64,000 nt of DNA from Siphonodentalium dalli (Eukaryota > Mollusca > Scaphopoda > Gadilida > Siphonodentaliidae): the NCBI GenBank assembly GCA_032622095.1, contig CP136061.1, forward strand, positions 190,780,369-190,844,368. The letters run 5' to 3'. Within the stretch, counting starts at the first letter, position 1. Every line of letters starts with the position of its first letter. Shown here one piece after another: positions 26,340-63,666 of the stretch. Made by a program: the position numbers and the translations under genes. The notes under the pieces are model-generated. The model was not told where the DNA came from and ran no database searches. It worked only from the letters and a program-made list of their open reading frames with translations.

Positions 26340-26860
26340 ATTTAGGCTCATCTCATACTCGTCCATTCAGCGATATTCTACTGCGCAGTTTGTTATAGCC
26401 TCCAGTATTTATTGAGCGTTATACCCCCAACTGTTATAATTCGCCTTTAGCAGGCGTACTCTTGCCTCAGATTATTGAGATATTAGGTCACACATAATCA
26501 CATTAAATCGCATCGTAACATAGCAATTGTGTGGGCTCCTTGGCGTGAATATGTAATGAGAAATAAGGTCATACGTAATGACATTAAACTCAAGAAAACC
26601 CTCGAAAACAAAACAAAATCACATTTAATGTTTTACGTTATTTCCTTCATAAAAAGAATCTTCGTGATAATGAACCCTCTCGTTACTTTAGAATATAGAA
26701 TTAACCTTAAAATAAAAAAAATCTTTGGAACACAAAACCTTCGGAATAACGAACCTTCGGATTGGTGAACCTTCGGAATAGCGAACATTCAGAGAAATTT
26801 CGGAATAGTGGACCTTCGGGATAGTGAACCTTCGGAATAGAGACATGCCCCCCAATATTC
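26340..26860 (-). mobile_element. Partial fold-back element, inverted copy
   Basis: In inverse orientation this block matches the interior and one arm of the 23.7-kb element: TCCATTCAGCG.TATTCT, TCCAGTATT.ATTG, CGCCTTTAGCA, TCACATTTAATGTTT, TTATTTCCTTCATAAAAAGA, then the CCTTCGGAATAG arm and terminal GAATAGAGACATGCCCCC. The other arm is missing, so the copy is truncated. Confidence 0.75.
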
Positions 26861-27059: not shown

Positions 27060-27345
27060 ATGACATAAAATCTCAAGAAAACCAGCGAAAACAAAAAAAA
27101 ATCACATTTAATGTTCTAAGTTAAGTTATTTCCTCCTGTATCTGTATCGGTGTGCGCGCATGATCAGTTCGGATGTGAGCGCACACTCCATATAAAGAAT
27201 CTTTGTGAAAATGAACCCTCTCAAATTAGTCTCAATACTTTAAAATATAGAATTAACCTAAAAATAACAAACACCTTCGGAATAGAGAACCTTCGGAATA
27301 GCGGACCTTCGGGATAGCAAACCTTCATAATAGAAGCATGTCCCC
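27060..27345 (-). mobile_element. Third fold-back fragment
   Basis: Repeats the ATCACATTTAATGTTC, TTATTTCCTCC, AAAGAATCTTTGTG, ATGAACCCTCTC, TATAGAATTAACCT and CCTTCGGAATAG arm series of the 26.3-26.9-kb copy, and ends near GAAGCATGTCCCCAC. It has a short internal insertion near 27140-27195. Confidence 0.7.
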
Positions 27346-27965: not shown

Positions 27966-28356
27966 AATGCAGCAAACATATTATGACATCGCTTCAGTGG
28001 TTCGTACGTGTGACATCAGTGATTGGATATACTTTCGCGATTAGTGCGAAACGCTCTTCATATTTATATCTTTTTGTAAAGTATAATGAGTCCGTCTGTT
28101 TTAAAGTAGAAATGGTCTGTTTTCTCTTCGCTGATTTTTTTCCCATTTTCCTTCTATTTCCAGCCGGTTTGCTAAGTCCCAGAACTCGTGTCCGTATTCA
28201 CTTGATGGGTCCGTTCTTTCATTCCTGAAGGCCAAACAGATGACTCCTCCTACAAGAGAAACGACTATTTAAACATTTAACCGACGTGTTCTTGCACTTA
28301 CCGGGTGTTGTCTTATATATGAACGTTTTGGTATCATGCGGTGTGAGATATTCATT
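27966..28356. other. Non-coding stretch
   Basis: Nothing recognised. Confidence 0.35.
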
Positions 28357-32995: not shown

Positions 32996-33465
32996 CTTAC
33001 ATTCAGCATAAACGGTCCCTTGTATATATACGGACATATACAATCGATGTTGACTCGGTTTCTGCTGGTGAGGAATACAAATAATTGTTTCATCACTAAC
33101 CTGATTTTATTAACCGTATCAGTTCATTAAGACTAGCTACTGGTAGGTGGCCCTCGGCGATGGCTGCTACCGCGATGACGCAATCATATGTGCCTGCAGA
33201 ATATATAAGAGAGGGATGGCTAAATATACGTCAGTTTGTTTGTCCATACAAAATTATCAAATCGGTTTAAGTTAAGTAAAAAAAAAAGCTGTAAGCTGTA
33301 ATACATGCAGAACTCATTGGACCGAACCTACATATATTCGAACCTGGCATGTATGTTTGGCGTGAAACACACCCTATATGTCTTAGTATAGTAGACGCAA
33401 GGTCTTAGTATAGTAGGCGCTTGTTAAAACTGTACAAACGAGAACTCCCTTCTTTCTGATCATAT
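32996..33465. other. Non-coding stretch before the LINE
   Basis: Nothing firmly recognised. A TATATAAGAGAGG phrase at about 33203 is TATA-like but has no associated gene. Confidence 0.35.
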
Positions 33466-36400
33466 ATATGTGGAACAAATAAAAGAAACAATCATAAAAA
33501 TTGTGGACCAATATACCATTGAAAACGCAGAAACCAAATATACAGTGGATGATCAAATGTTGTGGGAAATGATTAAACTGGGAGTGCGAGGAAAACCATT
33601 GCTTACTGCGCAAACAAAAAGAAATCTCAAATTAAGAAACAAAATGAGTTAGAACAAAAGTTACTTTATAATCAGAAAAAATTTGATGAAACTAAAGATG
33701 AACACTTTAAGCTATCAGCTGAAAAACTAGAAAATGAACTTTATACAATGAGACAAATACAAGTAAAAGGTTTAATGACTAGAGCAAAGGCCCAATGGTA
33801 TGCAGAAGGGGTAAAAAATACAAAATACTTTGCTTATTTAGAGAAAAGGCACTTTACTGAGAAGCTAATCCCAAAAGTAATACGAGAGGATGGTACATCA
33901 TTAACTGATATTACTGAAATTTTGGAAGAACAAAAACAATTTTATAAATTACTGTATAAAGCAGATACCAAAACAAACTGTGAAGAAATACAATATAACC
34001 AATTTCTAGATACCAAAAATCCTTATTTAGATACCAAATCTAGAGAAGAAACTAAATGTTGTGAGGGGTCTGTTGTATACAATGAACTGCTTACAGCATT
34101 GAAGTATGAAAAATAATAAGTCGCCAGGTGTCGATGGGTATACAGCCGAGTTCTATAAATTCTTCTGGAATGACATTTCAGATTATTTACTAAATACGGC
34201 CTATAGAAAGGGTCATATGTCACGGACACAGCGTCACGGTATGATTACTTGTTTACCTAAACCCGGAAAGGATAAATCGTATATAAAAAACTTGAGACCA
34301 ATCACACTTTTGAACGTCGATTATAAATTAGCTGCTACTGTAATAGCAAATAGATTGAAAACTCAATTGGGCTCAATGGTGAGCGATACACAGAAAGGAT
34401 TCATAAAGGGTCGTTCCATTGGAGAATGTACACGCCTAATATATTATTTGATTTTATAATGCGAGGAACATAAAATCCCTGGTTTAATGCTTCTTCTAGA
34501 TTATGAAAAAGCATTTGACTCTATAAAAGGGGACAGAAAACATTGGGTTTTTTTTGGCTTTGGCGATTCGATATGTAAATGGGTATCAACACTATACGGA
34601 GCAAACAGCTCAATCATCAACAATGGAAACTTATCACAATCTTTTAATATTGAAAAAGGGGTCAGACAAGGTAACCCATTGTCACCTTACATTTTCATAC
34701 TGTGTATTGAAACATTTGCAGCTACTTTCAAATATGATAACGACATTAAAGGTGTGAGAATAAATGATACAGAATACAAAATAAGCCAATATGCAGATGA
34801 TTCAACACTTTGGCTTGACGGTAGTGAATCATCGCTCAATGGAACTATAAATTTAATAAAATCCTTTGAAAGAGTATCAGGATTGAGAGCAAAGTTTGAA
34901 AAAACAGAAGCGGTGTGGTTTGGGAAAAGAAGGGGGTATACAAAATCATTACATACAAACACTAATTATAATGGAATCTCAGAGGAAAGTTCAAAACTCT
35001 TGGGGTGTTATTTAACTTGGAAGATCCCCTGTTAGTGTCTGAAAATTGGGAAGAAAAAAAATGTAAAATAGAGAACATATTAAAGCATTGGGCTTTAAGG
35101 ACACTGTCCCATATTGGGAAGGCCACTGTAATAAAAATGCTGGTACTCCCTATAATTATTCAAACAATGTCTGTGTTACCAGATCCGCAACCTAAGATAC
35201 TAAAGGAAATGCAGGGCTTGCTATTTGGGTTTTTTTGGAATGGAAAGCGCGATAAGATAAAACGAGATACTCTCATTCAAGATACAGAAAAGGGAGGCCT
35301 AAAAATTCCAGATATTAAATACTTCACAAAATCGCTGAAGGTCACATGGCTGAAGAAACTACTTGACCCCTTAAATTTTTCTGAATGGAAATTACTATTA
35401 TTTAACAAAATTTTTCAATACGGTGGTTTGGCCATGCTTAATTTAAATAAGCCCAGTTTGTTGAGAATATAAAAAGAACTGAATCCCTTCTGGAGAGATG
35501 TAATATCTGCATACGCATTGATAGCATCGGAACCCATAAATGTAGAAGATTATAAGAGTCAACCGATTTTCCATAATGTACATATGAAAATACAATATAA
35601 ACCCATATATTTTAGACAATGGATAGACAAACAGGTTTGATATATTAATGATATTTTGCGAGAGGATGGCACATTCATGAATACAGAAGAACTATCGAGC
35701 AAATACAGTTTGAAAGTGAACTATCTGACCCTTCAAGGAGTAATACACTCCATCCCTTCAACTTGGAAAAAAATAATAAAAGCCTCGAAAAATAAATTGG
35801 AGAATATTCAAAAAAGCGAACTTGTTGGAAAAATCATACAAGAAGACAAGTTGAATAAATACCTCTATTGGAAATTCATAAACTCGCTAGTTCCACACAA
35901 ACCGTGTGCGCAAGTTGGGTGGTGCCAAAAGCTAAATCTCGATCCAATGCAAATTAATTGGCAATTTAGCTATGCAAGGGTCTTTCAAGTTACAAAAAAC
36001 ACAAAACTGCAAGCCTTTCAATTCCAAATAAATCATAATACCTTGGTGACAAATGTATTCCTAGAAAAATGTAAAATTACTACATCAAACCTATGCACTT
36101 TTTGTGAGACAGAAAGGGAAAGTATACAACATTTACTTGTTACCTGTCAAAAGGTAAAACAAATATGGAACCAACTATCGGTACTGTTGGACTCAAAATG
36201 TCATTTACAACTTCCCTCAAAAACAGAAGATATACTCTTTGGGATAAGTACAGGAACAAATTTACTTGCAATAAATAGCATAATTCTGTTGACAAAGCGG
36301 TATATATACGTAACAAAATGCGGCAAAAACAATTTAAGTTTTGAAGCAGCCGTTCTTTTCTTTAACCAAGAGTATAACATTGAAAAACAAGCATGTAAAT

Positions 36401-36880
36401 GGAATGTCTCACTTAGAAATGCATTTGTGAAAAAATGGGACAGTGTCCTAGATATGTTCTCTTCACTCGATCATTGAGAAGTTTCCCCAAAGAGGTTTAA
36501 AAGCCCAACATTATTTATTAATCCCAATCAATATATTGTTGACATTTGTCCCAATTATGTTAAAAAAGATTATCTATTAAATCCCAAAACCATAGTGTAC
36601 ATAGCACAGCATAAAAGTCCAATATTACAGAACTTTGAACTTTCTTAAAACCTAGTTTCCTCTGCTGTTTCACAAAGTGTACGACCAAAATCATTAGACG
36701 AAACAAATTTCTGGCAAATATCGTGTAAAACACATTTGAGTGGCATGGCGACAAATTAATTTATACACAGGGTCTATGATTATTAATTTAGGTATGAATT
36801 ATGTATTTATGAAATACACCACTGTAATAATTGATAAATTGTATCAAAAATATGAATAAATGATAATAATAAAAAAAGTA
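33466..36880 (+). mobile_element. L1/Tx1-like LINE, 5'-truncated and inactivated
   Basis: The endonuclease half is absent. The copy starts in the linker (VEQIKETIIKIVDQYTI). Reverse-transcriptase blocks follow: NNKSPGVDGYTAEFYK, KPGKDKSYIKNLRPITLLN, DYEKAFDSI, EKGVRQGNPLSPYIF, and the catalytic YADDSTLWL at about 34793-34819. The distal part shows the zinc-knuckle CTFCETERESIQHLLVTC at about 36094-36147. Breaks seen: frame changes near 33660-33740, 34106-34116 and 35005-35035, and in-frame stops at 34457-34459, 35470-35472 and about 35638. The 3' end is an AT-rich tail with AATAAATGATAATAATAAAA. The order and motifs fit the L1/Tx1 group better than CR1 or RTE. Confidence 0.85.
34106..35035 (+). 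pseudogene. Reverse-transcriptase core of the LINE
   Basis: This segment holds the fingers and palm of the reverse transcriptase. It runs from NNKSPGVDG through QGNPLSPY to the catalytic YADD box and a following SGLRAKFEKTEAVWFG thumb-like motif. One in-frame TAA (34457-34459) separates the fingers from the DYEKAFD palm motif. All three catalytic aspartates (DYEKAFD and YADD) are present. It therefore decayed by a small number of lesions after insertion. Confidence 0.85.
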
Positions 36881-37034
36881 ATTATATGTTTCACCCCGTT
36901 TCATACATTACATATTGCATACTACACACTAGTCTGGTTTAATTCAATATCGCCCATCTATATATTCAGACGTTAAGGTCCGAATCGAGCCCATGATTGG
37001 ACTTATTTTTGGGATACCTTAAAGGTACTCAATC

Positions 37035-37170
37035 CGATCAGACGCTCATGAATTACTATTTCTTTGGCTTCGGGGGTAAAAAATATTTGATTCGAGCCGA
37101 GGAACCCACACATCAAAGCTCAGATTGATTAGATATCGATGTTTGAAATGTGTTGTTTCTATTGTTTGTG
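37035..37170 (+). repeat. Dispersed repeat family C, copy 3
   Basis: Same orientation as 23255-23430: GCTCATGAATTACTATTTCTT, GCTTCGGGGGTAAAAAAT, TTCGAGCCGAGGAACCCAC, CATCAAAGCTCAGATTG. Confidence 0.8.
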
Positions 37171-37227
37171 GCCCAATATTTTCGAGGACCACGTGCTAAA
37201 AATGGACAAATTGCGGCTGTAAGATGG

Positions 37228-37286
37228 ATAACTCTAAAATCAAGTTGTTACTGTTAACAATAATAACCACTTGATTTTAGAGTTAT
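37228..37286. repeat. 18-bp stem hairpin
   Basis: ATAACTCTAAAATCAAGT (37228-37245) and its exact inverse ACTTGATTTTAGAGTTAT (37269-37286). Loop of 23 nt. It may be a small palindromic insertion next to repeat family A. Confidence 0.8.
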
Positions 37287-37369
37287 TATGTGCTTAAGTT
37301 CCACCATTTTCAATGGAAGGGGAATAACTATATATGTTAAGATGAATAGCTTCATATGGATCTTAAATT

Positions 37370-37830
37370 CGGGGTGACCCCTAGATGGAGCCTATTTTGA
37401 CCGAATTGTTTTTGAATAACATGGCCGCCAGCGGCCATCTTGCAAATTACTCTTTGTATGACTAAATCCTTCGGCACACCGTACAGACCACATCTCTCAT
37501 CCGATCATCACCAAAAACATATGAATCTTCGGGATTACCTCTAGATGGGAGCCTCACATTTTTACCGAAATTTGTTAAATTACATGGCCGCCAGCAGCCA
37601 TCTTGGATTTCAAATATGAATCCATCGGCACATCCCGCAGCCCGCATTTATTGGAAAATTGATTTGAAATTTATAGGCATGTTTAGAATCACCTCTAGAT
37701 GGGAGCTCTTCGCATGACTAATTCCTTTAGCACACCCACCATACAGACCACATCCTCTGACCACATCTGATGATCACCACACTTCTAGTTGGGAGCCCCC
37801 TATTTTGACCGGAATTCGTTGAAAAACATT
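37370..37830 (+). repeat. Repeat family A, left part, interrupted by the copia element
   Basis: Units with CCTCTAGATGGGAGCC, ACATGGCCGCCAGCAGCC, CATCTTGGATTTCAAAT and CCATCGGCAC, about 150-bp period. The last unit is cut at TTGAAAAACATT (37830), and its remainder resumes at 42493 as ATATTGCCGCCAGCGGCC. Confidence 0.85.
37826..37830 (+). repeat. Target-site duplication, left
   Basis: ACATT immediately left of the LTR. The right-hand partner is ATATT at 42493-42497 (one mismatch). Five bases is the usual copia length. Confidence 0.6.
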
Positions 37831-37968
37831 TAATAAAGTAGTCGAGCTGCTCACCTCAGGCACATGTGCCAGCCACCATTTTGTCCTTCTTCCTTCCCTC
37901 AGGTCACATGTCAGTCATATGATGTCTGTCACATGGTGTAGTTAAAGTAGCATACCATGTTCATAACA
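37831..37968 (-). repeat. 3' LTR of the copia element
   Basis: 138 bp. On the element's strand it starts TGTTATGAACATGGTATGC and ends GACTACTTTATTA. It shares GTAGTCGAGCTGCTCACC, GGCACATGTGCCAGCCACC and TTGTCCT with the other LTR on the plus strand. It contains the palindrome GGCACATGTGCC. Confidence 0.9.
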
Positions 37969-37980
37969 ATCTCCCACTGT
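37969..37980 (-). other. Polypurine tract of the copia element
   Basis: On the element's strand, ACAGTGGGAGAT directly precedes the TG start of the 3' LTR. AGTGGGAGA is a typical copia plus-strand primer. Confidence 0.8.
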
Positions 37981-38031
37981 TTTCTAGAAGTCCCACATAT
38001 TTACATATATACAACGAATAGCCCATTTGGC

Positions 38032-38448
38032 TTACATCTGGATTGTTGAGTGCCTCAACACACCAAGGAGCTTACACCTTGATGCATTGTACTTTGTGAG
38101 GCAATCAGCTAACTGAATCTCTTTTGGAACATAGGTGACAGTGTCAATTTCTTTTTTCTGTAGCATCTCACGCAATATGCTGATATCTATCCTTAGCCGT
38201 TTGTCATGTACAGAATGAGTTGAAATCACTGAGTCAGCTAGAGATTTATTATCCGTAATACATGTTATAGGCAGTTCTGTGGTGAATCCAAAAAATTCTT
38301 GTATGATTGCTTTTAAGAAGAAACAGAATTCAGCTCCTTCCAATAGAGCAAGCGATTCAGCTGCCAATGTGCTCTTTACAACACGTTTAATTTTGGTTGA
38401 TTTCCACGCAATGGGAGAAACGAGTTGTTTTTCATTCATCAGAAACAC
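38032..38448 (-). pseudogene. copia RNase H domain
   Basis: The frame shows LVSPIAWKSTKIKRVVKSTL, AAESLALLEGAE (catalytic Glu), ITDNKSLADSV (catalytic Asp) and HSVHDKRLRIDISILREML, ending near the 3' LTR. This is the C-terminal domain of copia pol and removes RNA from the RNA-DNA hybrid. It is separated from the reverse transcriptase by a frameshift near 38450-38465, where the first RNase H aspartate segment (CYSDASF) lies in the upstream frame. Confidence 0.85.
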
Positions 38449-39365
38449 TATGAAGCTGCCTTGAGATATCCATCATCAGGTAAGTTACGAAATGAAGCAT
38501 CACTGTAGCAGACTATCTTATTACTGGTGATATCCCCTATATCAGGGAAGTTTATTGTCACTTGGTCACTTTTGAGTATCAGTAACTGTCCCACCACTGA
38601 CACTAATTTCACATGCATCATATGCCATATCAGGTCTTGTCTGGCTGTAACCCAAATTAACTGTCCTACAACACATCGAAGCTGCCTCATCTCTTTAACA
38701 GTTAATTTGTCCAATTTTTCATTACAATTGTTCAATGGAATCGGTTGAATGTCATTAATAGATTGGTTTTGATCAACAGAAATCAAATCAGTATTTTGAA
38801 CATGATTTAAGCCAAGATACTTAAATCCATCGCTCTCTTCTTTGCTGATCTTAAATTTGTTTTTGATCGCTTTAATGATTGTTTCTTTGAACAGGTGAGA
38901 TCCACTCCACAAGAAATCATCCACATGGCAAGCAATTACTCCATGAAGTTCGTTTTTGTGTTGCCAATAGAATAACGCTGGATCGTATTTGCACATTTTG
39001 ACACCAAGAGAAGATAATTCAGACTTCACAGTCAAATACCATACTCTCGATGCATCACCGAGGCCATATACAGCTGTCTTTAGTTTCCACAGTTTGTCAG
39101 TAGCTGCTTCTTTGGGAGGTTTAATGTACACTTCTCGCTCTATATTCTGTCATTGGAGAAATGCTGCCTTGAAATCTAATGAGTTCATTTTCCATTTCGT
39201 TGATGGAATAATCGCCAACATCAATCGTAAACTATCTTTCAGACAGGTTGGAGAATCTGTTTGTAATCCAGTATAATCTTCTTCATACCCTCGTGCTACA
39301 AGTCTAGCTTTCACAATTCTTTTGCCTTCTTTTACTTTTTCAGTCAATACCCAACGAACTGACAT
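38448..39365 (-). pseudogene. copia reverse transcriptase domain
   Basis: In minus-strand order: SVRWVLTEKVKEGKRIVKAR, LVARGYEE, NSLDFKAAFLQ (first catalytic aspartate), then after an in-frame TGA (about 39147-39149) VYIKPPKEAA, LKTAVYGLGDASRVWY, and the catalytic VDD in ACHVDDFLWSG (about 38910-38942). The connection and CYSDASF follow. The motifs are those of the copia-type RVT_2 domain. The stop and the flanking frameshifts show that the copy cannot make polymerase. Confidence 0.88.
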
Positions 39366-41312
39366 AGTATAGTATTCTGACCTTCATTGTATACTTCAAG
39401 ATAGACATTGTTGTTTTTCCAGTTGATGAGCTCTTGGTTCTTTGCACTAGATATTTCAGAAGCTTCGAACGAACATAAATCAATAAGAATTTCCTCAGTT
39501 TTAGGATGCCATGCTGCGAGATTATCAAAATCAACAGCCTTCTCTATGTCATCACTTATGTCTCTAATATTCAACCAATACTTATATTTTCCTGACGCCT
39601 TTCCACCACGTCCTAATACAGTAGCTTCTTTCCAATTTGAATCTTCAGTATCCTTGTACACAATAATGGAAGATTTATCAGGTAGTTCACCAGATGTGAT
39701 AGTATGATTAGTCGGATGTGAATCAGAAACTTTGTGTTCATCAACATTTTCTGCTGCATATAATTGTTCAGTCAGATTGTATGTAGAATCATATTCAACA
39801 GATTCATTTTCTGCTTGAGTTATTGGAATGTCATTTTCACATGAATTAGTCACTTTTTGTTCATGAACATGTTTCAAATTACAAGGATTTGTTCGATAAA
39901 ATTCACCTCCATGTGTAATGAATACTTGGTGAGCATCTTTGCCTATCACAACTGCTGGTCCTTGTCAGATTTTGGAACTCAGGCGCTTGTAGTACACTTT
40001 GTCCCCAGTCTCAAATATTAGTGCAGTTGAAGATCTGATGTTGTATCGCAATGCGCGCCTGATCTTTTCTGAAGCTTCACTTTTGATAAAAGATTCCCGT
40101 GCAGTATGCATGGCATTAAGATGATCACTTATAAGTCGACTGGATGTCCTACCTTCCAAATGCTGGTGGGTGATCAATAAGCACAGATGGAGTATTTGGG
40201 TTTTCCCCGAATACAAGTTGATTGGGACTAAATCCATAAACATTTTTGAGTGCGTTTTTGGAACTCACAGCCCAAGCCAGAGCAACATATATGGAGCATT
40301 TAGTGTTTTCAAGAATTTTCCCAACCATGTTGCCAATGACAGCATTATGACGCTCTGTTATTCCATTCTACCATGGAGATTCTGCTGGTGTGGTGAGTAC
40401 AGTTATATTTAAATTTCCACACATATCTCGAAATAATTTATTCTGAAATTCACGGCCATTGTCAGACAACAAACGAGCCGGAGGTCCAAATATGGATATC
40501 CAGTATTTGAATATATTGTCAATTATCGTTTCAGCCTTCTTATCCTCGTTAACTACTGCCGAACTGAAGCGTGTTGCATGATCAATCATGTGTAAGAAAT
40601 ATATGTCCTTGAAAACCTTCAGATCCATGGAAACACATTCATTAAATTTCTCAGCTAAAGACAAACCAACAACTGGTCGAGGATTCCTTCGCTTATACTT
40701 CATGCATACAGAGCACCCACTTTCAACAGACGCTATAGATTCATTGAATTCTTTGTCACAAACTCCACTGTCCTGCATGAGTTTGATAAGCTTATTGCTA
40801 TGAGCGTGTCCAAACTGTCTTTGTAATTTCCTGACAACTTTCATTTTCTCTTTTTCCGACATCTGTGTCAGATCATCAGAACATAATAGTAACATTTGTT
40901 TTTGACAATCACTGTGTGATGCACTGAGATTAGTATTACTCAGAGGCACAGCATAATGACCACTAGATGTAAATGTTAATTTTACATCTTCTCCAAGAAT
41001 ATTTGAAGTGTCTGAACGAAAGTGTATAGTTGTATTTGCTTTCTTCATTGAAGATTTGCTGAGTAGCAGTGGCAGGGCACAGACTATAAATTCAGTCTCT
41101 ATCAGAACAGATTGATTAGCAAGAGTTGCAGGAATGGTGACATGACGGAGTGATTTTACAATACGACCATCTCCAAACTGGAAACTTGTTGAACTCGGCG
41201 AATAAACCAATTTACGCTTATCCTCATCAGGAATGGAGTCTGAATAACAATACAGCCAGTCTTCACCACAGACAGTTTTAGTGCAACCACTGTCTAGTAT
41301 TGCAGAATTCAA
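39344..41312 (-). pseudogene. copia protease-integrase region
   Basis: Begins in the same frame as gag, one stop codon downstream. The aspartic protease motif is AILDSGCTKTVCGEDW. The integrase zinc-binding region (HAHSNKLIKLMQDSG...CSVCMKYKRR) is followed by the DDE core: MDLKVFKD, LLSDNGREF, and the glutamate in TPAESPW. A TAG (40368-40370) directly follows that tryptophan; the frame then continues and is shifted near 40170. A TGA at 39965-39967 interrupts the C-terminal part, and a frameshift at about 39360-39370 separates it from the reverse transcriptase. The integrase inserts cDNA; the protease cleaves the polyprotein. Confidence 0.85.
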
Positions 41313-41315
41313 AGT

Positions 41316-42191
41316 TTATCCAACTAAACTGTCAAGATAGATGGAGTCCAAACTTGACGAATAGAGTGTTACATAAACTGTTTCATTATTATTTGGACAT
41401 CGATTCGCCCAATGAAATATCGAATCACAAATAGCACACCTTGATATGTTGCCTCTTGAATCCAAAGGATTAGTTGCAGTCGAAGTTCTTGAAAACTGTC
41501 CAAAGTTTGAGCTTCGACCAGAACGTCGCAAATTTCTTTGATACCCCCGATTTTGCTGAAATCTGCGCACGTTATTTCCTCCACGGTTATACAGAAGTTG
41601 TTCCTCAGTTGCGGTATAAACTGGTTCAACTTTAACCTGCTGATCAACTTTGACTTCAATTTCAGATGTAACTGTCACAACAATTGCCTTCAATTGTTTT
41701 TTCATGTTGTCAAAAGTCAAATCTGTCAAGGTTGCTCTTGCAAGTTGTTGCTTTTCCAAGGAAATGTTAGCGCTCTTGAGAAGTCGGTATGCCCGAATAC
41801 TGTCCGGAAGCTCCATTTTGTGAGTTTTTAGTTTGTTGTATTTTCTTTCCAACTCATTGATGTATTCAACAATCGACATATCAGAAGGTCTTTGAAACGT
41901 CTCAAAACTTTCATATGCTATAAACGCAGCCTGATGAGCATCTGTTGCATACAATGTGTTGAGTTTGTCGATGAGTTTCTTCATCCCTTCATCAACAATT
42001 AGTTCATCAACTTTCAAGTCTGCACATGCATGTCGCGTTTTTCCATTCAACGCTAAATATACAGCAGGAGCTTGTTTCTTTTTATCCAGTGTAGTAAAAC
42101 ACTGCCATAATTCAATGTCCCGCAGCCACATTTCAAAGTCCGAGTCATCACTATAGACTGGCGGATTGAATACAGACTTGTTTGTCGCCAT
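41316..42191 (-). CDS. copia gag (capsid/nucleocapsid)
   Basis: An uninterrupted 291-residue frame begins MATNKSVFNPPVYSDDSDFE with ATG at 42191, about 160 bp inside the 5' LTR. The helical capsid part shows WLRDIELWQCFTTLDKKKQA and MSIVEYINELERKYNKLKTH. A basic, glycine-rich linker leads to the zinc knuckle CAICDSIFHWANRC (CX2CX4HX4C), which binds RNA. It ends in TAA at 41316-41318. The protease starts in the same frame right after, so the usual single gag-pol frame is cut by this one stop, either a mutation or a site of stop suppression. Gag is the only element ORF that remains intact. Confidence 0.88.
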   Translation of the reverse strand: MATNKSVFNPPVYSDDSDFEMWLRDIELWQCFTTLDKKKQAPAVYLALNGKTRHACADLKVDELIVDEGMKKLIDKLNTLYATDAHQAAFIAYESFETFQRPSDMSIVEYINELERKYNKLKTHKMELPDSIRAYRLLKSANISLEKQQLARATLTDLTFDNMKKQLKAIVVTVTSEIEVKVDQQVKVEPVYTATEEQLLYNRGGNNVRRFQQNRGYQRNLRRSGRSSNFGQFSRTSTATNPLDSRGNISRCAICDSIFHWANRCPNNNETVYVTLYSSSLDSIYLDSLVG

Positions 42192-42330
42192 GCTGGAAAA
42201 ATAATATTTCCTGTTTCCAACTTCAAGTAAAAAATTCCAACAAAATCTGTAATTTGTTCAGAAATAGAACACACACATTACATCTAGAAATGTCCATGGC
42301 ACATATTGAAATACTATTGGTATTTGTGTG

Positions 42331-42351
42331 AACAACCTGGCTCTGTTACCA
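42331..42351 (-). other. Primer-binding site of the copia element
   Basis: On the element's strand TGGTAACAGAGCCAGG directly follows the 5' LTR. It differs by one base from the TGGTATCAGAGC-type site of many copia elements, which pairs with initiator tRNA-Met. Confidence 0.8.
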
Positions 42352-42492
42352 TAATAAAGTAGTCGAGCTGCTCACCTCAGGCACATGTGCCAGCCACCAT
42401 TTTGTCCTCCTTCTTCCTTCCTTCAGGTCACATGTCAGTCACATGATGTCTGTCACACAAAGTAGTTAAAGTAGCATACCATGTTCATAACA
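42352..42492 (-). repeat. 5' LTR of the copia element
   Basis: 141 bp, partner of 37831-37968. Differences include TCCTCCTTCTTCC versus TCCTTCTTCC and ACACAAAGTAG versus ACATGGTGTAG. It presumably holds the element promoter. No TATA box is obvious. Confidence 0.9.
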
Positions 42493-43250
42493 ATATTGCC
42501 GCCAGCGGCCATCTTGGTGTCCGTCGTCCGTGCACCCGTCCGTCAACAATTTCCTTTGGCTCACCCTACAGGCCGCATCCCTCATCCGATCATCACCAAA
42601 CTTCATATGGATCTTTGGGGTGACCTCTAGATGGGAGCCATCGATTTTTTCCACAGGCCACATCCCTCATTGACGAAATTCGTTAAAAAACATGGCCGCC
42701 AGCAGCCATCTTGGATTTCAAATTTTAATCCATCGACACCGCCTGCAGTATCAGCCCGCATTTATTGGAGAATTATTTGAACATTTACAGTAATGTTTAG
42801 AATGACCCCTAGATGGGAGTCATCGGATTTGAACATTTTTCGATGAAAAAAATGGCCGTTGGCATCCATCTTGGATTTTACTGTTTGCATGACTAAATCC
42901 TTTGGAACACCCTACATACCACATCCTTCATCCGATCATCACCAAACTTTATATGGATCTTCATGGTGACTTTTAGATGGGAGCCATCGATGTTTTCCGA
43001 AATTCGTAGAAAAACATGGATGCCTGTGGCCATATTGGATTTTACTCTTTGTCTGACTAAATCCTTCGGCACACCGCACAGGCCACACCCTCACCCAATC
43101 GGCACCAAACTTCATATGGATCTTCGGGATAACCTCTAGATTGGAGCCGTCGATTATTTCCCAAATTCGTTATAAAACAGCAGTCATCTTGGATCCATCT
43201 GCACACCCTGCAACCCACATTTATTGGTGAAATGTTTGAAATGATAATAA
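42493..43250 (+). repeat. Repeat family A, right part
   Basis: Starts mid-unit at ATATTGCCGCCAGCGGCCAT, then about four more units (CATCCGATCATCACCAAAC, CTCTAGATGGGAGCC, AACATGGCCGCCAGCAGCC). It continues the array broken at 37830. Confidence 0.85.
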
Positions 43251-43583
43251 TTTCATCTACACAAACTTTACTGTAACTTTTTGGCTTTCCTTCTTCTTCA
43301 TCATTCTATTCATTGCTCAGCAAAAATTAACTCTTTCCCAAGTTGAGCCGCATTGTCATTGACACTTTCATTATTGATATATTGGGGTGTTTTTCTTCTG
43401 ATTTTCGTTGACAACGTGGTAAGAGACATATCCCCTTGACATTGACACCATTTAATTGCGAACAATAGTTCTAATTACGTATAACACAGACACAGGACGC
43501 CACTAGACCCTACGGTGCTACTACTGATGTTATTCAATCAGTAGAGCGCTAATTGGTTCCATTGACCTATTAAGTTTTATCTA
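43251..43583. other. Non-coding stretch
   Basis: Nothing recognised. Confidence 0.35.
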
Positions 43584-44080
43584 AACAAACACAAATTACT
43601 ACCAAATAAAAAAAAAGATCAACAAAATAAACCTTGGTATTTTCATATAGATATAATTATAATAAACATGACTGGTATAAATTTACCTTTGGTAAGCATA
43701 GCATAATCCAAAAAATTCTCAATGCTTACACATTACTTCCTAGAATGACACAGAGAAATGATGAATCCCTAAAAACATCCAAGGGTCTTCAGGTTAAGTT
43801 CCAGGGAATCCAGGGGAAATTTACAACTTTTTACCAATGACATGGCCTGATGACTTTTGACCTGGGCACTGAAGGTCACTGCCTAATGACATCACATCAG
43901 CTGTTTCGTGCACATGGCCATGATGGAAGTCCATTGTGGAAATTGGAAATACTGTTTTTATTTTGAATTATGCTATATGCTTACCAAAGGTAAATTTATG
44001 CCAGTCATGGTTATTATACATCCATAATAAAATATCATTCCTTATTTTGCTGATATTTTGGTAGTATTTTTTGTTGGTTC
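43584..44080. mobile_element. Non-autonomous element with about 120-bp terminal inverted repeats
   Basis: The left arm (AATTACTACCAAAT, ACATGACTGGTATAAATTTA, CCTTTGGTAAGCAT) is matched in inverse on the right (ATGCTTACCAAAGG, TAAATTTATGCCAGTCATGG, ATTTTGGTAGTATTTTTTGT). The interior of about 250 bp has no transposase ORF. Confidence 0.8.
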
Positions 44081-44509
44081 AGATACCCACTGTTATGGGC
44101 AATAGAACCAGGTGGAGGCTAAATACTTGTTAGTTTGGGTTTAGCCTCGTATGGTCTAGACGCCACGTCCGCGGTGAACTTTGGACACCGTACCTATAGG
44201 ACGTGACAACGTCATTATGTTAGACATATACATATGTATACCCTTGTATTAGACCTAACTGGTGGGTGGTATTATTGCATAAGACCTACTTGGCGCCGCG
44301 GAATACGTGTATCAGACTATAGTCCAAGTTTCCTTCGACGTAAACCAGCCATTGATATCAGCTGGGACAGTGCTGGCTTTACGCCGAAGTCCCGTACATA
44401 TATACCGCTCTATATCGGGGTTTAAGCGCTGTTGACCCGCTCACCCTGATTCTCCAAATTACTTTGATTAAAGGCACAACTGTTACAGTAAACTGGTTTA
44501 TTCCATAGA
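44081..44509. other. Non-coding stretch
   Basis: No recognised gene. The 63-codon ORF at 44234 has no domain features. Confidence 0.35.
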
Positions 44510-46560
44510 AGTCATGATATATGTTCTGATTATCAGATTACTTATTGTGACATATCAGATTACTTAATATGATATATCAGATTACTTAATGTTATATATC
44601 AGATTACTTAATGTGATTATCAGATTACTTAATGTTATATATCAGATTACTTAATGTGATTATCAGATTACTTAATGTTATATATCAGATTACTTATTGT
44701 TATATATCAGATGACTTAATGTGATATATCAGAATACTTAATGTGATATATCAGATTACTTAATGTTATATATCAGATTACTTAATGTTATATATCAGAT
44801 TACTTAATGTTATATATCAGATTACTTAATTTTATATATCAGATTACTTAATGTTATATATCAGATTACTTAATGTGATATATCAGATTACTTATTGTTA
44901 TATATCAGATTACTTAATGTTATATATCAGATTACTTAATGTTATATATCAGATTACTTAATGTGATACATCAGATTACTTATTGTTATATATCAGATCA
45001 CTTAATGTGATATATCAGATTACTTATTGTTATATATCAGATTACTTAATGTGATACATCAGATTATTTATTGTGATATATCAGATTACTTAATGTTATA
45101 TATCAGATTACTTAATGTGATATATCAGATTACTTAATGTGATATATCAGATTACTTAATGTGATATATCAGATTACTTAATGTTATATATCAGATTACT
45201 TAATGTGATGTATCATATTACTTAATGTGATATATCAGATTACTTAATGTGATATATCGGATTAATTAATGTGATATATCGGATTACTTAATGTGACATA
45301 TCAGGTTACTTAATATGATATATCAGATTACTTAATGTGATATATCAGATTACTTAATGTTATATATCAGATCACTTAATGTGATATATCTGATTACTTA
45401 TTGTTATATATCAGATTACTTAATGTGATATATCAGATTATTTATTGTGATATATCAGATTACTTAATGTTATATATCAGATTACTTAATGTGATATATC
45501 GGATTACTTAATGTGATATATCAGATTACTTAATGTGATATATCAGATTACTTAATGTTATACATCAGATTACTTAATGTGATATATCAGATTACTTAAT
45601 GTGATATATCAGATTACTAATCTGATATATCAGATTACTTAATGTGATATATCAGATTACTTAATGTGATACATCAGATTACTTAATGTGATATATCGGA
45701 TTACTTAATGTGATATATCAGATTACTTAATGTGATACATCAGATTACTTAATGTGATATATCAGATTACTTAATGTGATATATCAGATTACTAATCTGA
45801 TATATCGGATTACTTAATGTGATACATCAGATTACTTAATGTGATATATCAGATTACTTAATGTGATATATCAGATTACTAATCTGATATATCGGATTAC
45901 TTAATGTGATATATCAAATTACTTAATGTGATTATCATATTACTTAATGTGATATATCAGATTTCTTAATGTGATATATCAGGTTACTTATTGCTAAATA
46001 TCTGATTACTTAATGTGATATATCAGATTACTTAATGTGATATATCAGATTACTTATTGTGATATATCAGATTACTAATCTGATATATCGGATTACTTAA
46101 TGTGATATATCAAATTACTTAATGTGATTATCATATTACTTAATGTGATATATCAGATTTCTTAATGTGATATATCAGGTTACTTATTGCTAAATATCTG
46201 ATTACTTAATGTGATATATCAGATTACTTAATGTGATATATCAGATTACTTATTGTGATATACCAGATTACTTAATTGTGATATATCAGATTACTTAATG
46301 TGATATATCAGATTACTTAATGTGATATATCAGATTACTTAACGTTATATACCAGATTACTTAATGTGATATATCAGATTACTTAATGTGTTATATCAGA
46401 TTACTTATTGTTATATATCAGATTACTTAATGTGATATATCAGATTACTTAATGTGATATATCAGATTACTTAATGTGATATATCAGATTAGTAATGTAG
46501 TAATATGATATATCAGATTACATAACCTGATATATCAGAATAATAATCTGATATCTCATA
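44510..46560 (+). repeat. 22-bp minisatellite with palindromic core, about 90 copies
   Basis: Roughly 2 kb of tandem units, core TGATATATCAGATTACTTAA followed by TG. TGATATATCA is a perfect palindrome, and where units abut as ...ATTACTAATCTGATATATCAG the palindrome grows to the 20-mer TAATCTGATATATCAGATTA. There is variant structure: GTTATATATC and GTGATATATC alternate, and a block of about 196 bp is duplicated (45894-46089 and 46090-46285), marked by CAAATTACTTAATG, GATTATCATATT and TTGCTAAATATCTG. An outlying single unit lies near 48135. Confidence 0.95.
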
Positions 46561-47032
46561 TTAAAGGCAGGGCGGCGTTCGTTGCAGAAATATTCATATT
46601 TGTTCTAATCGTCATCAACAGAAAGAATATTCAAATATATATAGTTTTGTTCATATGCCAAACATAATCAGCGCGTAAATAGTATATTGTCGTCAATACG
46701 TACGATGGTGTACGTAAACAAGAGCCTGTTCGTGTTACAGAAGTTGTGCTTCTGTTTACATAACACAGCGCAATTCTATTGGTTAATCACACACAAATGA
46801 TATATATGCTCTTTATTATTTTCATATCAGGAAAACAGTAACAAATAACGCTCTTTATGTTTACCATATCCGGATCTAAACAAAAGCCAGGTAACGTAAC
46901 TTTTTTTGCTTTTGTTTACATAACAAAGGACAAATAATTGACAATAATTAACATACTGTTTATGCCATATTTCTGATTGGTATAAGAACAAGGTCTCTCT
47001 ATATTTACTTTTCTTTCTGTTTATGGCGGTGT
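46561..47032. other. Non-coding stretch
   Basis: Nothing certain. It may include 5' sequence of the LINE fragment that follows. Confidence 0.3.
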
Positions 47033-47830
47033 TTGACGGAGGTGATTATTTTAACAGCATACCCACCGCCAACTCCGCCCGTATCTTTAAGTAATCTGAG
47101 TTGTAGTAAAGAGGGCTTGCTCCACGAAACTGGGTGGGAGACACTTACGAATAGACGCCGAAAAACCAAGCTAACCCAATTTTTCAAAATGGTGAAAAAG
47201 TCAACACCCGCCTACCTATACATATATGTTCCCCCTATATCAGGGAGTCTAACAAATTACGACTTCAGACCTAAAGACATGGAACCGGTTTTTTGTAATA
47301 CTGAATCATATAAAAAATCCTTTTTACCTGCAGCTGTGAGTCTATGGAATGATCTACCACCGGAGGCTAAAAAATGTGAAACCATATCGGACTTCAAATC
47401 TTTTCTTAATACTGACCTCGTCGTGAGCCCCCGTTACATGGAATTTGCTTACACAAGACGAAGTCAAATTTTTCATTGTCGACTACGACTAGGGTGTAGC
47501 AATCTGAACTACGACTTATATCTCAATCATTTGCAAGACAATCAATATTGTATATGTGGCGAAGTTGAAACAGTATCACACTTCTTGCACTATTGCCCAG
47601 TCTTTGAAGCCGAGAGAGATATATGTCTCAGCAACCTTAATAATTTGGAAACAAAAACACTCTTAGAAGGTTCAAAATCACTTCCCTTATCCAAAAACAT
47701 ATTATTCGCTAACATTCAGAAATATATAGAACTAACTGGCAGATTCAAGCCATATTATGCACAGACCTGATGTATACGATCTTATGCTATGTATGGAACA
47801 AATTAAAAACGCATTAAAATCAAAATTAAA
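47033..47830 (+). mobile_element. LINE C-terminal fragment, open reading frame intact
   Basis: A 245-codon frame reads LLHETGWETLTNRRRKTKLT, FFKMVKKSTPAYLYIYVPP, SLWNDLPPEAKKCETISDFK, SFLNTDL, the LRLGCSNLNYDLYLNHL block, and the zinc-like CICGEVETVSHFLHYC. This is the characteristic tail following the reverse transcriptase in invertebrate non-LTR elements. The reverse transcriptase itself is absent, so the copy is 5'-truncated. The lack of any stop over 245 codons suggests a recent insertion. A tail with AAATTAAAAACGCATTAAAA follows the stop at 47768-47770. Confidence 0.75.
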
Positions 47831-48509
47831 CTAAGTGTAACATCAATCCCAAAAGTACCCTGCCAAAACCTGCTACGATTGAGGGGGGGGGGCACATTAT
47901 AATTAACAATAACAATAGTAATTTCTTGAGCTGTATACATTCATATACATCGAAATGTACATTCTAGTTTTGTCTGTATGAAACGGTCACCATTCATTAT
48001 TTCATACGTGTAGGAGATGGCTTAAGATAAGCATTATGCTTACTGCCAAATCCCATTATAACCACCAATATCTCTCATCATCATACCGTGAATTTTGTAC
48101 ATTATATTGGTTAAAATAAAATATGTTTAAACTAAGTAATCTGATATATCAGAATACGAAGTATATCAAATTAATAACTAAAGAGGGTGTGGTGGTTCCA
48201 CACCGCCGTACAATTCTATTATATATACCCGGCAGTTTGTAAATTGGAAATTACATATACACCGCGAGACGTCCAGTGTAAGAAATGTTGAACTAATAAT
48301 TAACATAGGATCACTCAAAATAAAAATAAAAACAACAAGTAATGGGACGTTGGAATAAAATAACAGCGCACCTGATCATAAAAGGTCACAAAAGTGTATG
48401 GGTGTTACCGTGTACTCGATTGCTGTTGGCATAGAAGCCGAACGTTACTGATTACACTTCGGAATAGATCGGGTATTTTTTCCTGCATGATGGTGTATAC
48501 ATGTTTCAG
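47831..48509. other. Non-coding stretch
   Basis: Contains a G-rich run near 47882-47891 and a single stray unit of the 22-bp minisatellite (GTAATCTGATATATCAG, near 48137). No METTL27 exon was recognised. Confidence 0.4.
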
Positions 48510-49452
48510 TCTTACCTGGTGGTATACTTGCTTCCGTCTTATACCTGGTGATATACTGGTATCAGACCTAGCTGGTGGTATACTTGTTCCAGTCTTACCT
48601 GGTGGTATACTTGCTTCAGTCTTACCTGGCGGTAAACTTGTTTCAGTCTTACCTGGCGGTATACATGTTTCAGTCTTATATGGCGGTATACTTGCTTCAG
48701 TCTTACCTGGTTGTATATTTGGTAACATACCTAGCTGGTGGTATAATTGCTTCTGTCTTACCAGGTGGTATACTTCTTCCAGTCTTTCCTGGTGGTATAC
48801 TTGTTTCAGTCTTAACTGGCGGTATACTTGTTCCAGTATTACCTGGCGTATACTTGTTCCTGACTTACCTGGTTGTATACTGGTGTCAGACCTAGCTGGC
48901 GGTATAATTGCTTCAGTCTTACCTGGTGGTGTACTTCTTCCAGTCTTACCTGGTGGTATACTTGTTTCAGTCTTAACTGGCGGTATACTTGTTCCAGTAT
49001 TACCTGGCGGTATACATGTTCCTGACTTACCTGGTTGTACACTGGTATCACACCTAGCTGGTGATATATTTGTTCCAGTCTTACCTTGCAGTATACTTGT
49101 TTCAGTCTTACTGGCGGCATATTTGTTCCAGTCTTACCTGGCGGTATATATTCTTCAGTCTTATCTGGTGGTATACTTGTTTCAGTCTTATCTGGTGGTA
49201 TACTAGTTTTAGTCGTATCTGGTGGTAAACATGTTTGAGTCTTATCTGGTGGCATACTTGTTCCAGTCTTTCCTGACGGTATACTTGTTTTAGTCTTACC
49301 TGGTTGTATACTTGTTTCAGTCTTACCTGGTTGTGTATAACTTGTTTCAGTCTTACCTGGTGGTATATATGTACTTGTTTCAGGCATGCCTGCATTGTGG
49401 TGTCCTTGTTTAAGTCTTGCCTGGCGATATACTTGTTTCAGTTTTCAGTTTG

Positions 49453-49484
<32 letters not shown>

Positions 49485-49860
49485 CTTGTTTCAGCCTTAT
49501 AGCTGCATGGCGGTTCAGTTGCTTCAGTCTTATACCTGGTGGAATACTGGTATCAGACCTAGCTGGTGGTACACTTGTTCCAGTCTTACCCGGTTGTATA
49601 CTTGTTCCAGTATTAGCTGTTGGTATACCTGTATTAGACCTACCTGGTGGTATACTTGTATCAGACATACCTGGTGGTATACTGTTTGGTATAATACCTA
49701 CCTGGTGATATACTTCCTTCAGTCTAACCTAGTGGTATACTGCAGGGTATCAGACGTACCTGGTGGTATACTTGTATCAGACCTACCTGGTGGTATACTT
49801 GTATCAGACCTACCTGGTGGTATACTTGTATCAGACCTACCTGGTGGTATACTTGTTTGA
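48510..49860 (-). repeat. 27-bp minisatellite whose units carry a 5' splice-site consensus
   Basis: About 45-50 units; on the minus strand each reads approximately ACAAGTATACCACCAG followed by GTAAGACTGA or GTAGGTCTGAT. The junction CCAG|GTAAGA closely fits the metazoan 5' splice-site consensus, and CCAG|GTAGGT fits well too. At least a dozen units have the first form and about five, next to METTL27 exon 3, have the second. The period is exactly nine codons, so frames stay open over long runs on both strands (minus-strand motif TSIPPG(R/K)(S/T)(D/E)). A TA tract (about 49455-49482) and some rearranged units interrupt the array. The four units nearest exon 3 are essentially identical, indicating the youngest end. 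Confidence 0.9.
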
Positions 49861-49976
49861 TCCCCCGTCACTGCTTCGTGGATGAGTCGTCGATAGATCC
49901 CTTTCTTCTCAGCAGCCGCTAACATGGTAGCTGATGGGTCGATGGCGTCGATCGTTTGGAACCCGCGCTTCAACAA
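49841..49976 (-). CDS. METTL27: METTL27-like methyltransferase, exon 3
   Basis: METTL27 is a putative S-adenosylmethionine-dependent methyltransferase. The exon follows a CCTATAG acceptor (49977 onward on the plus strand) and reads LLKRGFQTIDAIDPSATMLA, AAEKKGIYRRLIHEAVTGD, TSIPPG. It covers the second strand of the Rossmann fold with the acidic residues of the SAM pocket (IDAIDPS) and continues exactly from exon 2 in phase 0. The most upstream good donor is CCACCAG|GTAGGT at 49841, giving phase 1 after 45 codons. In family members a proline/glycine segment at this point is followed by the TFDA/YDA motif, which agrees with an exon end here. Beyond it the 27-bp array repeats the same exon end and donor many times. 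The exons encoding the rest of the fold were not found at lower coordinates. Confidence 0.8.
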
Positions 49977-54864: not shown

Positions 54865-54993
54865 CTCTTCCCCAACGTGTCCAGTTCCTGCGGCGACGTC
54901 AAGCACAGCAACGTCGCCCGATTTATCTTCATAGAAGTTTGCGATTGCGTCTGCAGCGATGGCCGGCGCATCATACATACCGCGTGTGGTATC
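54865..54993 (-). CDS. METTL27: METTL27-like methyltransferase, exon 2
   Basis: Preceded by acceptor CTTCCACAG and followed by donor GAAGAG|GTGTGG, so the exon is exactly 43 codons and symmetric (phase 0-0). It reads DTTRGMYDAPAIAADAIANF, YEDKSGDVA, then the SAM-binding motif I VLDVAAGTGHVGEE, whose AGTG glycine loop binds the cofactor. The MYDAPAIAADAI part matches the helix before the fold in METTL27 proteins. Together with exons 1 and 3 it gives about 128 residues of continuous methyltransferase sequence. Intron 1 separates it from the nearest exon 1 copy by about 3.1 kb. Confidence 0.88.
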
Positions 54994-58142: not shown

Positions 58143-58262
58143 CTCGTGATAAGCACCACATTCGGCCCATTCGTCGTAACAAGAGACCACATCCATGTGG
58201 GTTACATCTTTCTTGAACAGCCGCTGTAAGTACTTTTCATTGGCCGCAATATTCTCCTCCAT
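58143..58262 (-). CDS. METTL27: METTL27-like exon 1, copy 1 (nearest to exon 2)
   Basis: ATG at 58262, forty codons: MEENIAANEKYLQRLFKKDV, THMDVVSCYDEWAECGAYHE, ending at donor CACGAG|GTTTGT in phase 0, which joins exon 2 in frame. VVSCYDEWAE is the family's N-terminal YD.WA motif. A cysteine-rich, slightly unusual AECGAYHE replaces the more common tyrosine/aspartate pattern. A TATA-like box lies 88 bp upstream of the ATG. Two further copies lie upstream at 60850-60969 and 63547-63666. Confidence 0.88.
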
Positions 58263-60849: not shown

Positions 60850-60969
60850 CTCGTGATAAGCACCACATTCGGCCCATTCGTCGTAACAAGAGACCACATC
60901 CATGTGGGTTACATCTTTCTTGAACAGCCGCTGTAAGTACTTTTCATTGGCCGCAATATTCTCCTCCAT
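60850..60969 (-). CDS. METTL27: METTL27-like exon 1, copy 2
   Basis: Encodes the same forty residues as copy 1 with the same donor. It could act as an alternative first exon spliced over about 5.9 kb to exon 2, with copy 1 skipped, or be silent. Confidence 0.8.
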
Positions 60970-63546: not shown

Positions 63547-63666
63547 CTCGTGATAAGCACCACATTCGGCCCATTCGTCGTAACAAGAGACCACATGCAT
63601 GTGGGTTACATCTTTCTTGAACAGCCGCTGTAAGTACTTTTCATTGGCCGCAATATTCTCCTCCAT
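63547..63666 (-). CDS. METTL27: METTL27-like exon 1, copy 3
   Basis: Identical to the other copies except aspartate-24 to histidine (THMHVV), from a C-to-G change in plus-strand ATCCATG. Donor and start codon are preserved. As the copy with the ancestral upstream flank it may be the original promoter-exon. Confidence 0.8.

What the first reader, a model, noticed from the sequence alone, without database searches (positions are those of the whole stretch)
48510..49976. Exon-3 splice donor amplified into a minisatellite of about 45-50 in-phase donors
METTL27 exon 3 (LLKRGF...TSIPPG) runs without a break into a 27-bp tandem array on its own transcribed strand. Many units reproduce the exon end and a near-consensus 5' splice site (ACCACCAG|GTAGGT or ACCGCCAG|GTAAGA). 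Because 27 bp is nine codons, using any donor within an open run would add whole multiples of nine residues (TSIPPG plus three) and keep the phase. The four units next to the exon are near-identical, the distal ones varied, suggesting growth from the exon side. Seen: the exon, the units and the period. Inference: the array arose by slippage of the exon-donor junction and offers a graded choice of 5' splice sites, or a U1 snRNP sink.
Basis: partly seen in the sequence, partly recalled or inferred. Interest (0 to 1): 0.85.

Follow-up and report, generated by a model that had tools for sequence, protein, structure and literature searches.

The report
Exon-end minisatellite in a METTL27 gene
The end of one exon of a methyltransferase gene, with its splice signal, has been copied about 50 times into the next intron; such "mirage" repeats are already known from lancelets, most copies here are probably ignored by splicing, but the first four could lengthen the protein by 0, 9, 18 or 27 residues.

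Summary
The minus strand holds a five-exon METTL27-like gene. Exon 3 (49976-49841) runs into a 27-bp array (48491-49858, 49.6 copies) whose first unit is the exon end plus donor. In 15 of 16 paralogs the donor sits at the same place; the nearest paralog has a single junction matching the unit at 20 of 27 bases, and all 32 genome matches to the unit lie in this array. So it grew in place. But 28 of 48 scored units keep GT, 15 of those 28 are in phase, and only the first four reach exon 4 without a stop (+0, +9, +18, +27 residues). The +1 G is among the least conserved positions.

A second METTL27 paralog carries an unrelated 33-bp array at the same exon end, again with four in-phase donors. Elsewhere, 6 of 30 donor-bearing arrays sampled start at recognisable exon ends. 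In those six and a motif-only seventh, no later donor examined keeps the frame. Best reading: a "mirage" minisatellite, as in lancelets, mostly silent. A short in-phase ladder, as in human IFI6, is possible but unproven: no RNA data were available.

The parts
49841..49976 (-). Exon 3 of the METTL27-like gene (136 nt, enters in phase 0, leaves in phase 1), acceptor CCTATAG, donor CAG|GTAGGT
   Evidence: 15 of 16 paralogous exon 3s have their donor at the same offset
48491..49858 (-). 27-bp minisatellite, about 50 units, each derived from the last 16 nt of exon 3 plus the first 11 nt of intron 3
   Evidence: TRF; unit dissection; private to this locus
49760..49841 (-). The four donors that keep phase and frame (last exonic bases 49841, 49814, 49787, 49760; +0, +9, +18, +27 residues of RSDTSIPPG)
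49719..49721 (-). First stop codon in the exon-3 frame on reading through the array; donors beyond it cannot give full-length protein in this frame
   Evidence: open frame ends at 49722
58143..58262 (-). Exon 1 (MEENIAANEKYLQRLF...); two more copies at 60850-60969 and 63547-63666
54865..54993 (-). Exon 2, with methyltransferase motif I (VLDVAAGTG)
33101..33193 (-). Exon 4 (TYDCVIAV...), acceptor TCTGCAG, fits the phase-1 end of exon 3
28104..28249 (-). Exon 5, last coding exon (GGVICLAF...RPFLL)
33194..49840 (-). Intron 3 (16,647 nt); the array forms its 5' end

Best explanation
This is a mirage-type minisatellite: a tandem duplication that spanned the exon 3/intron 3 junction of a METTL27-like gene and then grew in place to about 50 units. 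Duplicating a donor junction leaves one complete exon end with its donor at the 5' edge, so the new copies fall inside the intron and can pile up harmlessly. The ancestral, 5'-most donor (49841) most likely still ends exon 3. The next three units are near-identical, in phase and open, so occasional use of them would only add 9, 18 or 27 residues in the loop just before 'GTYDCV'. Later donors lead to a stop or a frameshift, and would be passed over by exon definition or their products removed by nonsense-mediated decay. Shown here: gene anatomy, homology of the junction, private origin of the array, the count of usable donors, similar arrays at other exon ends. Inferred: which donors are used, neutrality, decay of aberrant transcripts.
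For: Five exons in order on one strand with matching phases and an open frame of 208 codons; best solved match METTL27 7qcb, E 3.1e-27. Nearest paralog (C2:15.01 Mb) ends exon 3 as TCAAGTATAGCATTGG|GTAGGTC, one copy, nearest tandem repeat 369 nt further on and unrelated. 15 of 16 paralogs have the donor at the same offset. Unit private to the locus: 32 of 32 matches. +1 G kept in only 33 of 46 units, so donors are not being preserved across the array. Similar arrays sit at other exon ends: F-type lectin, USP47, ShK, carbamoyltransferase, peptidase M16 and MFS exons. In these six, plus a phosphatase-like exon known by motif only, 0 of 25 downstream donors within the roughly 200 bp of array fetched keep both phase and frame. 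[quoted passage not shown] passages in PMC3087553).
Against: No transcript data, so first-donor use is inferred. The first four units are strikingly uniform and all in phase, and the METTL27 paralog at C2:25.49 Mb has an independent 33-bp array at the same exon end, again with four in-phase open donors: more coincidence than a purely neutral account likes. The genome-wide contrast is weak as a statistic: by Pfam alone 5 of 30 donor arrays against 0 of 18 control arrays (one-sided Fisher 0.08; 6 of 30 with a PDB search that controls did not get, 0.05), and in the 18 arrays whose pattern the controls match, 1 against 0 by Pfam, 2 against 0 with PDB. The sampled arrays are not all independent. 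The exon-end claim rests on each locus's own protein match.
Confidence: 0.76

Rival explanations
1. Graded in-phase splicing: the exon-proximal block is a working ladder of four alternative donors that gives METTL27 isoforms with 0-3 extra nine-residue loops, as reported for the human IFI6 (6-16) minisatellite.
For: Four strong donors (recalled-matrix scores 6.06, 6.06, 6.06, 5.29) in phase and open; an independent 33-bp array at the same exon end of a paralog, also four in-phase donors; a 57-bp in-phase duplication of the exon-2 donor in a third paralog; IFI6 transcripts use downstream repeat units as donors (passage in PMC4526556).
Against: No expression evidence; 44 of 48 scored units cannot serve; seven other exon-end arrays of the genome have no usable ladder in the part read; 3 periods divisible by three among 10 junction arrays or duplications is what chance gives.
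Confidence: 0.14
2. U1 snRNP sink or intron protection: the dense donors bind U1 without splicing and protect the 16.6-kb intron from premature polyadenylation, or titrate U1 locally.
For: 23 strong donor matches in 1.37 kb, about 50 times the density of the rest of the intron, all on the transcribed strand; 12 AATAAA hexamers in the intron (no chance expectation computed).
Against: The +1 G varies more than most other columns, the opposite of selection for U1 pairing; no functional data.
Confidence: 0.04
3. The gene is a dead relic and the array an ordinary minisatellite without any splicing context.
For: Exon 5 reads to RPFLL* and shows another open frame (DHFYFKTDGLIILYKKI) after an A7 run, possibly a frameshift.
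Against: Exons 1-5 in order, all splice phases fit, 208 open codons, significant METTL27 match over residues 27-196. An assembly error in the A7 run would explain exon 5.
Confidence: 0.06

Closest known systems
Mirages: minisatellite-like tandem duplications of exon-intron boundaries in amphioxus (Adh3, globins, TnC; similar repeats in PGBD5)
   Same: Array of short units (10-72 bp at Adh3) spanning an exon-intron boundary; many but not all units hold AG/GT signals; several genes of one genome affected (passages in PMC3087553, PMC3902484).
   Different: The original report (Canestro 2002) is not held; only its reference line was seen.
Human IFI6 (6-16/G1P3) minisatellite with multiple splice donors (Turri 1995)
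   Same: Minisatellite at an exon end whose units offer donors; downstream units could be used as alternative 5' splice sites.
   Different: The unit is 12 nt in IFI6 (recalled), 27 nt here; use of downstream donors is reported for IFI6 (passage in PMC4526556) and unknown here. The original paper is not held; its title was seen in reference lists only.
Tandem repeats at exon-intron boundaries of human segmental-duplication genes
   Same: Minisatellites of about 30-bp units at exon-intron boundaries that can alter splicing (passages in PMC2812944).
   Different: There they are reported to form novel introns with transcript support; no new intron is shown here.
Intron gain by tandem genomic duplication of AGGT (Rogers model)
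   Same: Many units carry AG|GT, which could act as donor or acceptor (passages in PMC3443670).
   Different: Here an existing intron boundary was amplified; no new intron is shown.

Membership tests
Mirage minisatellite | Tandem units span an exon-intron boundary | tested here: met
   Unit = last 16 nt of exon 3 plus 11 nt of intron
Mirage minisatellite | Many but not all units carry a splice signal | tested here: met
   GT in 28 of 48 scored units
Mirage minisatellite | Recurs in several genes of the genome | tested here: met
   6 of 30 donor-bearing arrays sampled start at recognisable exon ends; METTL27 paralog L011
Mirage minisatellite | Regular splicing undisturbed | not testable with these tools
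   No RNA data for this genome
Mirage minisatellite | Length instability between alleles | not testable with these tools
   One assembly only
IFI6-type donor ladder | Units keep phase and frame when downstream donors are used | tested here: inconclusive
   True for the first 4 units only, of 48 scored
IFI6-type donor ladder | Transcripts use downstream units as donors | not testable with these tools
   No RNA data
METTL27 gene | Sequence match to METTL27 over the methyltransferase domain | tested here: met
   7qcb E 3.1e-27; Methyltransf_25 46.1 bits, cut-off 27

The most novel reading that the evidence does not exclude
The end of METTL27 exon 3 is a recurrent, selected site of loop-length evolution. 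Two paralogs independently built in-phase donor ladders there (27 and 33 nt, four usable donors each), and a third duplicated its exon-2 donor in phase (57 nt). Copy-number changes in these arrays would change both the isoform mix and the length of the loop before the GTYD strand. More broadly, exon-junction minisatellites in this genome would be a standing source of new splice forms.
Probability: 0.12. Interest if true: 0.78.

Novelty: new member of a known kind. Interest (0 to 1): 0.52.

Why it matters
In the passages read, mirages were described from a handful of lancelet genes, with one human parallel in which downstream units are used (IFI6). Here the same structure appears at several exon ends of one large genome, in seven of them with a period that is not a multiple of three, and twice independently at the same exon end of one gene family. 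That gives a natural experiment on donor choice: the spliceosome meets up to about 28 GT donors in a row and must keep choosing the first, or is allowed to choose among the first four. RNA reads from this one genome would test exon definition, proximal-donor preference and the harmlessness of junction duplications at several loci at once.

Tried and rejected
Other copies of the array: DNA search gave weak hits at C1:34.64 and 34.66 Mb; these are an unrelated 29-bp array without GT at the matching place. The 14-mer has 8 matches, 4 in the array and 4 elsewhere (C4, C5 twice, C9), against 7 control matches, so those elsewhere are at chance level. Units with at least 19 of 27 matches elsewhere in the window: none on either strand.

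Growth from the exon side: no gradient. Selection for donors: column conservation is against it.

Genome-wide excess of donor-bearing arrays: raw hits 3,673 against 2,138 reversed-control hits for the 8-mer and 756 against 154 for the 9-mer, but hits overlap within arrays and the lists are cut at about 100 rows. Among the listed rows on C1, control arrays were not rarer than donor arrays, so no array-level excess is claimed.

Rows dropped before counting; further copies of one 26-bp family at 231.99-232.06 Mb; three arrays already held and one at the end of the cut list (C3:229.05 Mb); the array shared (C1:50.09 Mb), and neighbouring or family copies at 60.89, 84.78-84.83 and 91.40 Mb. The sets are not independent: L057/L058 and L059/L060 share a family, and several controls share two families.

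Frames tested by Pfam: donor arrays, 20 of 20 frames of 20 aa or more in 12 of 18 loci of the first set (the other 6 had no such frame) and 14 of 15 frames of 18 aa or more in 10 of 12 loci of the second (one long repetitive frame of L064 was not sent, and 2 loci had no such frame); controls, 16 of 16 frames in 12 of 18 loci (earlier joined). Long frames were cut to their last 100-110 residues. PDB search was given to five donor frames only, not to controls; it is the only support for L021. Not counted: L023 DUF5471 (6.3e-5, below cut-off, repetitive frame, no stretch passing alone) and L022 Chlam_PMP (0.0014); MgtE 0.0088 and DegQ 0.018; frataxin 0.073; 4jiv 0.67. L038 is motif only: no database hit. 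Of the six counted, L062 (28.9 against 29.7 bits) and L065 (28.0 against 29.4) fall just under Pfam's curated cut-off.

Rfam: 0 matches in the window at gathering scores.

Full report
What is there. Tandem Repeats Finder reports a 27-bp array at 48491-49858, 49.6 copies. On the minus strand the open frame LLKRGF...GDQTSIPPG runs straight into it.

The gene. Using paralogs from the same genome, I located five coding exons in order on the minus strand: 58262-58143, 54993-54865, 49976-49841, 33193-33101 and from 28249. Phases fit at every junction and give 208 codons. The spliced protein matches METTL27 (7qcb, E 3.1e-27, residues 27-196) and Methyltransf_25 above its cut-off. Exon 3 leaves in phase 1, and exon 4 opens with GC-ACA-TAT, so the join reads ...TSIPPG-TYDCVIAV. 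In the 7qcb alignment this join falls at '...PDPEGTFDAVI', without a length change there.

The junction is ancestral. Seventeen exon-3 places were found, the window included. In 15 of the 16 paralogs a GT follows at exactly the same offset; the remaining one, L002, has a 1-nt deletion in the exon. The nearest paralog, L001, ends TCAAGTATAGCATTGG|GTAGGTCACAT, 20 of 27 bases identical to the array unit, and its intron then diverges with no array close by. A 25-mer of the unit with up to 3 mismatches has 32 matches in the searched genome, all in this array; the reversed control has 2. So the array is the exon-donor junction amplified in place.

How many donors. I cut the array into 51 unit segments, of which 48 could be scored. 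GT stands at the homologous place in 28 of 48, in 4 of the first 4 and 24 of the other 44. 15 of these 28 are in phase by length; 4 are in phase and reach exon 4 without a stop. The first stop in the frame lies at 49719-49721. The +1 position keeps G in 33 of 46 units, among the most variable of the 27 columns, while the preceding CCAG keeps 44 of 46 at each position. Across the array donors are thus being lost rather than kept. By a recalled donor matrix the array holds 23 strong sites, against 5 in the rest of intron 3 and 0 on its other strand. Identity to the first unit shows no trend along the array; only the first four units stand out, and a weak six-unit echo suggests block duplication.

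Recurrence in the family. Paralog L011 (C2:25.49 Mb) has an unrelated array over the same exon end: 33 bp, 4.7 copies, 99% matches, from 26 nt before to 128 nt after the donor. Donors at +0, +33, +66 and +99 are in phase and the frame is open; a fifth at +149 is out of phase. Paralog L003 has its exon-2 end and donor duplicated at 57 bp, in phase and open. The other 15 exon-3 places have no tandem repeat over the junction.

Recurrence in the genome. A pattern of three AGGTRAGT at minisatellite spacing was sampled: the 18 distinct arrays in the first rows listed (about 100 of 3,673 hits, all on C1) and 12 further arrays from a CAGGTGAGT pattern (about 100 of 756 hits listed). I read the frames that run into the first donor and could test a frame in 22 of the 30. 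Six of 30 are recognisable exons: F-type lectin (PDB search, 8.9e-8), USP47 (6.2e-12), MFS (2.7e-13), peptidase M16 (7.9e-7), carbamoyltransferase (2.6e-6) and ShK (2.6e-4) (the M16 and carbamoyltransferase matches are slightly under Pfam's cut-off). A seventh, L038, carries what I recall as a tyrosine phosphatase P-loop but has no database hit. Of 18 arrays found with the reversed 8-mer pattern, 12 had a testable frame and 0 gave a match below 0.05 when sent singly (0.015 at best in the joined). As a statistic this is weak: Pfam alone 5 of 30 against 0 of 18, Fisher 0.08; in the matched 18 against 18 only 1 against 0; and controls got no PDB search. The claim that arrays begin at exon ends therefore rests on the single matches, not on the contrast.

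Phase elsewhere. In the seven exon arrays (six plus L038) the period is never a multiple of three, and 0 of 25 downstream donors in the stretch fetched keep both phase and frame. Exon-end arrays therefore persist where only the first donor can work, which is the main reason to think that downstream donors are normally ignored. With the three METTL27 cases, 3 of 10 periods are multiples of three, as chance would give.

A rough argument (inference, not computed by a call): arrays born at random rarely contain a donor octamer, arrays born at an exon end often do, so a search for donor octamers picks out the exon-end ones. No junction-targeting process is needed.

What is known. Tandem repeats spanning exon-intron boundaries were named mirages in amphioxus; those at Adh3 (10-72 bp) and in globin genes do not appear to disturb regular splicing although many units carry AG/GT (passages in PMC3087553; PMC3902484). 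In human IFI6, downstream repeat units are used as donors (passage in PMC4526556; the original paper is not held). In human segmental duplications, tandem repeats at exon-intron boundaries can form novel introns (passages in PMC2812944). My searches for closer cases showed none in their listings; subscription journals are mostly not held, so this is not proof of absence.

Verdict. By anatomy it belongs with the mirages. A ladder of 45-50 in-phase donors is not there; a ladder of four is, and whether it is used is the open question.

Noticed in passing
C2:25488729-25489014 (L011, minus strand): A METTL27 paralog with an unrelated 33-bp (11-codon) array over the same exon-3 donor, 99% uniform, with four in-phase open donors.
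   Followed up: yes
L003 8487-8601 (C1:257.82 Mb, minus strand): Exon-2 end and donor of another METTL27 paralog duplicated in tandem at 57 bp, in phase.
   Followed up: partly
L021, L029, L057, L062, L065, L066, L038: Donor-bearing minisatellites of 38-49 bp that begin at exon ends of other genes (F-type lectin, USP47, ShK, peptidase M16, carbamoyltransferase, MFS; L038 phosphatase-like by motif only).
   Followed up: partly
58143-58262, 60850-60969, 63547-63666: Three near-identical copies of exon 1 at 2.7-kb spacing (third with one residue changed), apparently a tandem triplication.
   Followed up: partly
28104-28249: Exon 5 ends early at RPFLL*; another frame after an A7 run stays open (DHFYFKTDGLIILYKKI). 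A frameshift or an assembly error.
   Followed up: no
44236-44294, minus strand: Sequence resembling two decayed array units (CCACCAGTTAGGTCTAATACAAG), about 4 kb further into the intron; below 19 of 27 matches.
   Followed up: partly
44527-46563: A 22-bp array of about 93 copies with 90% matches in the same intron.
   Followed up: no
23695-23804, 24475-24590, 26716-26840, 27273-27334: Several 16-bp arrays of one unit (AACCTTCGGAATAG..) in both orientations; similar units occur in L004 and L007.
   Followed up: no
33428-36474 (+) and 38035-42257 (-): Open frames that look like a non-LTR reverse transcriptase and a copia-like polyprotein inside the gene's span (recognised from recall, not searched).
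   Followed up: no
L002 (C2:14.817 Mb): A close copy of paralog L001 with a 1-nt deletion in exon 3, probably a pseudogene.
   Followed up: no
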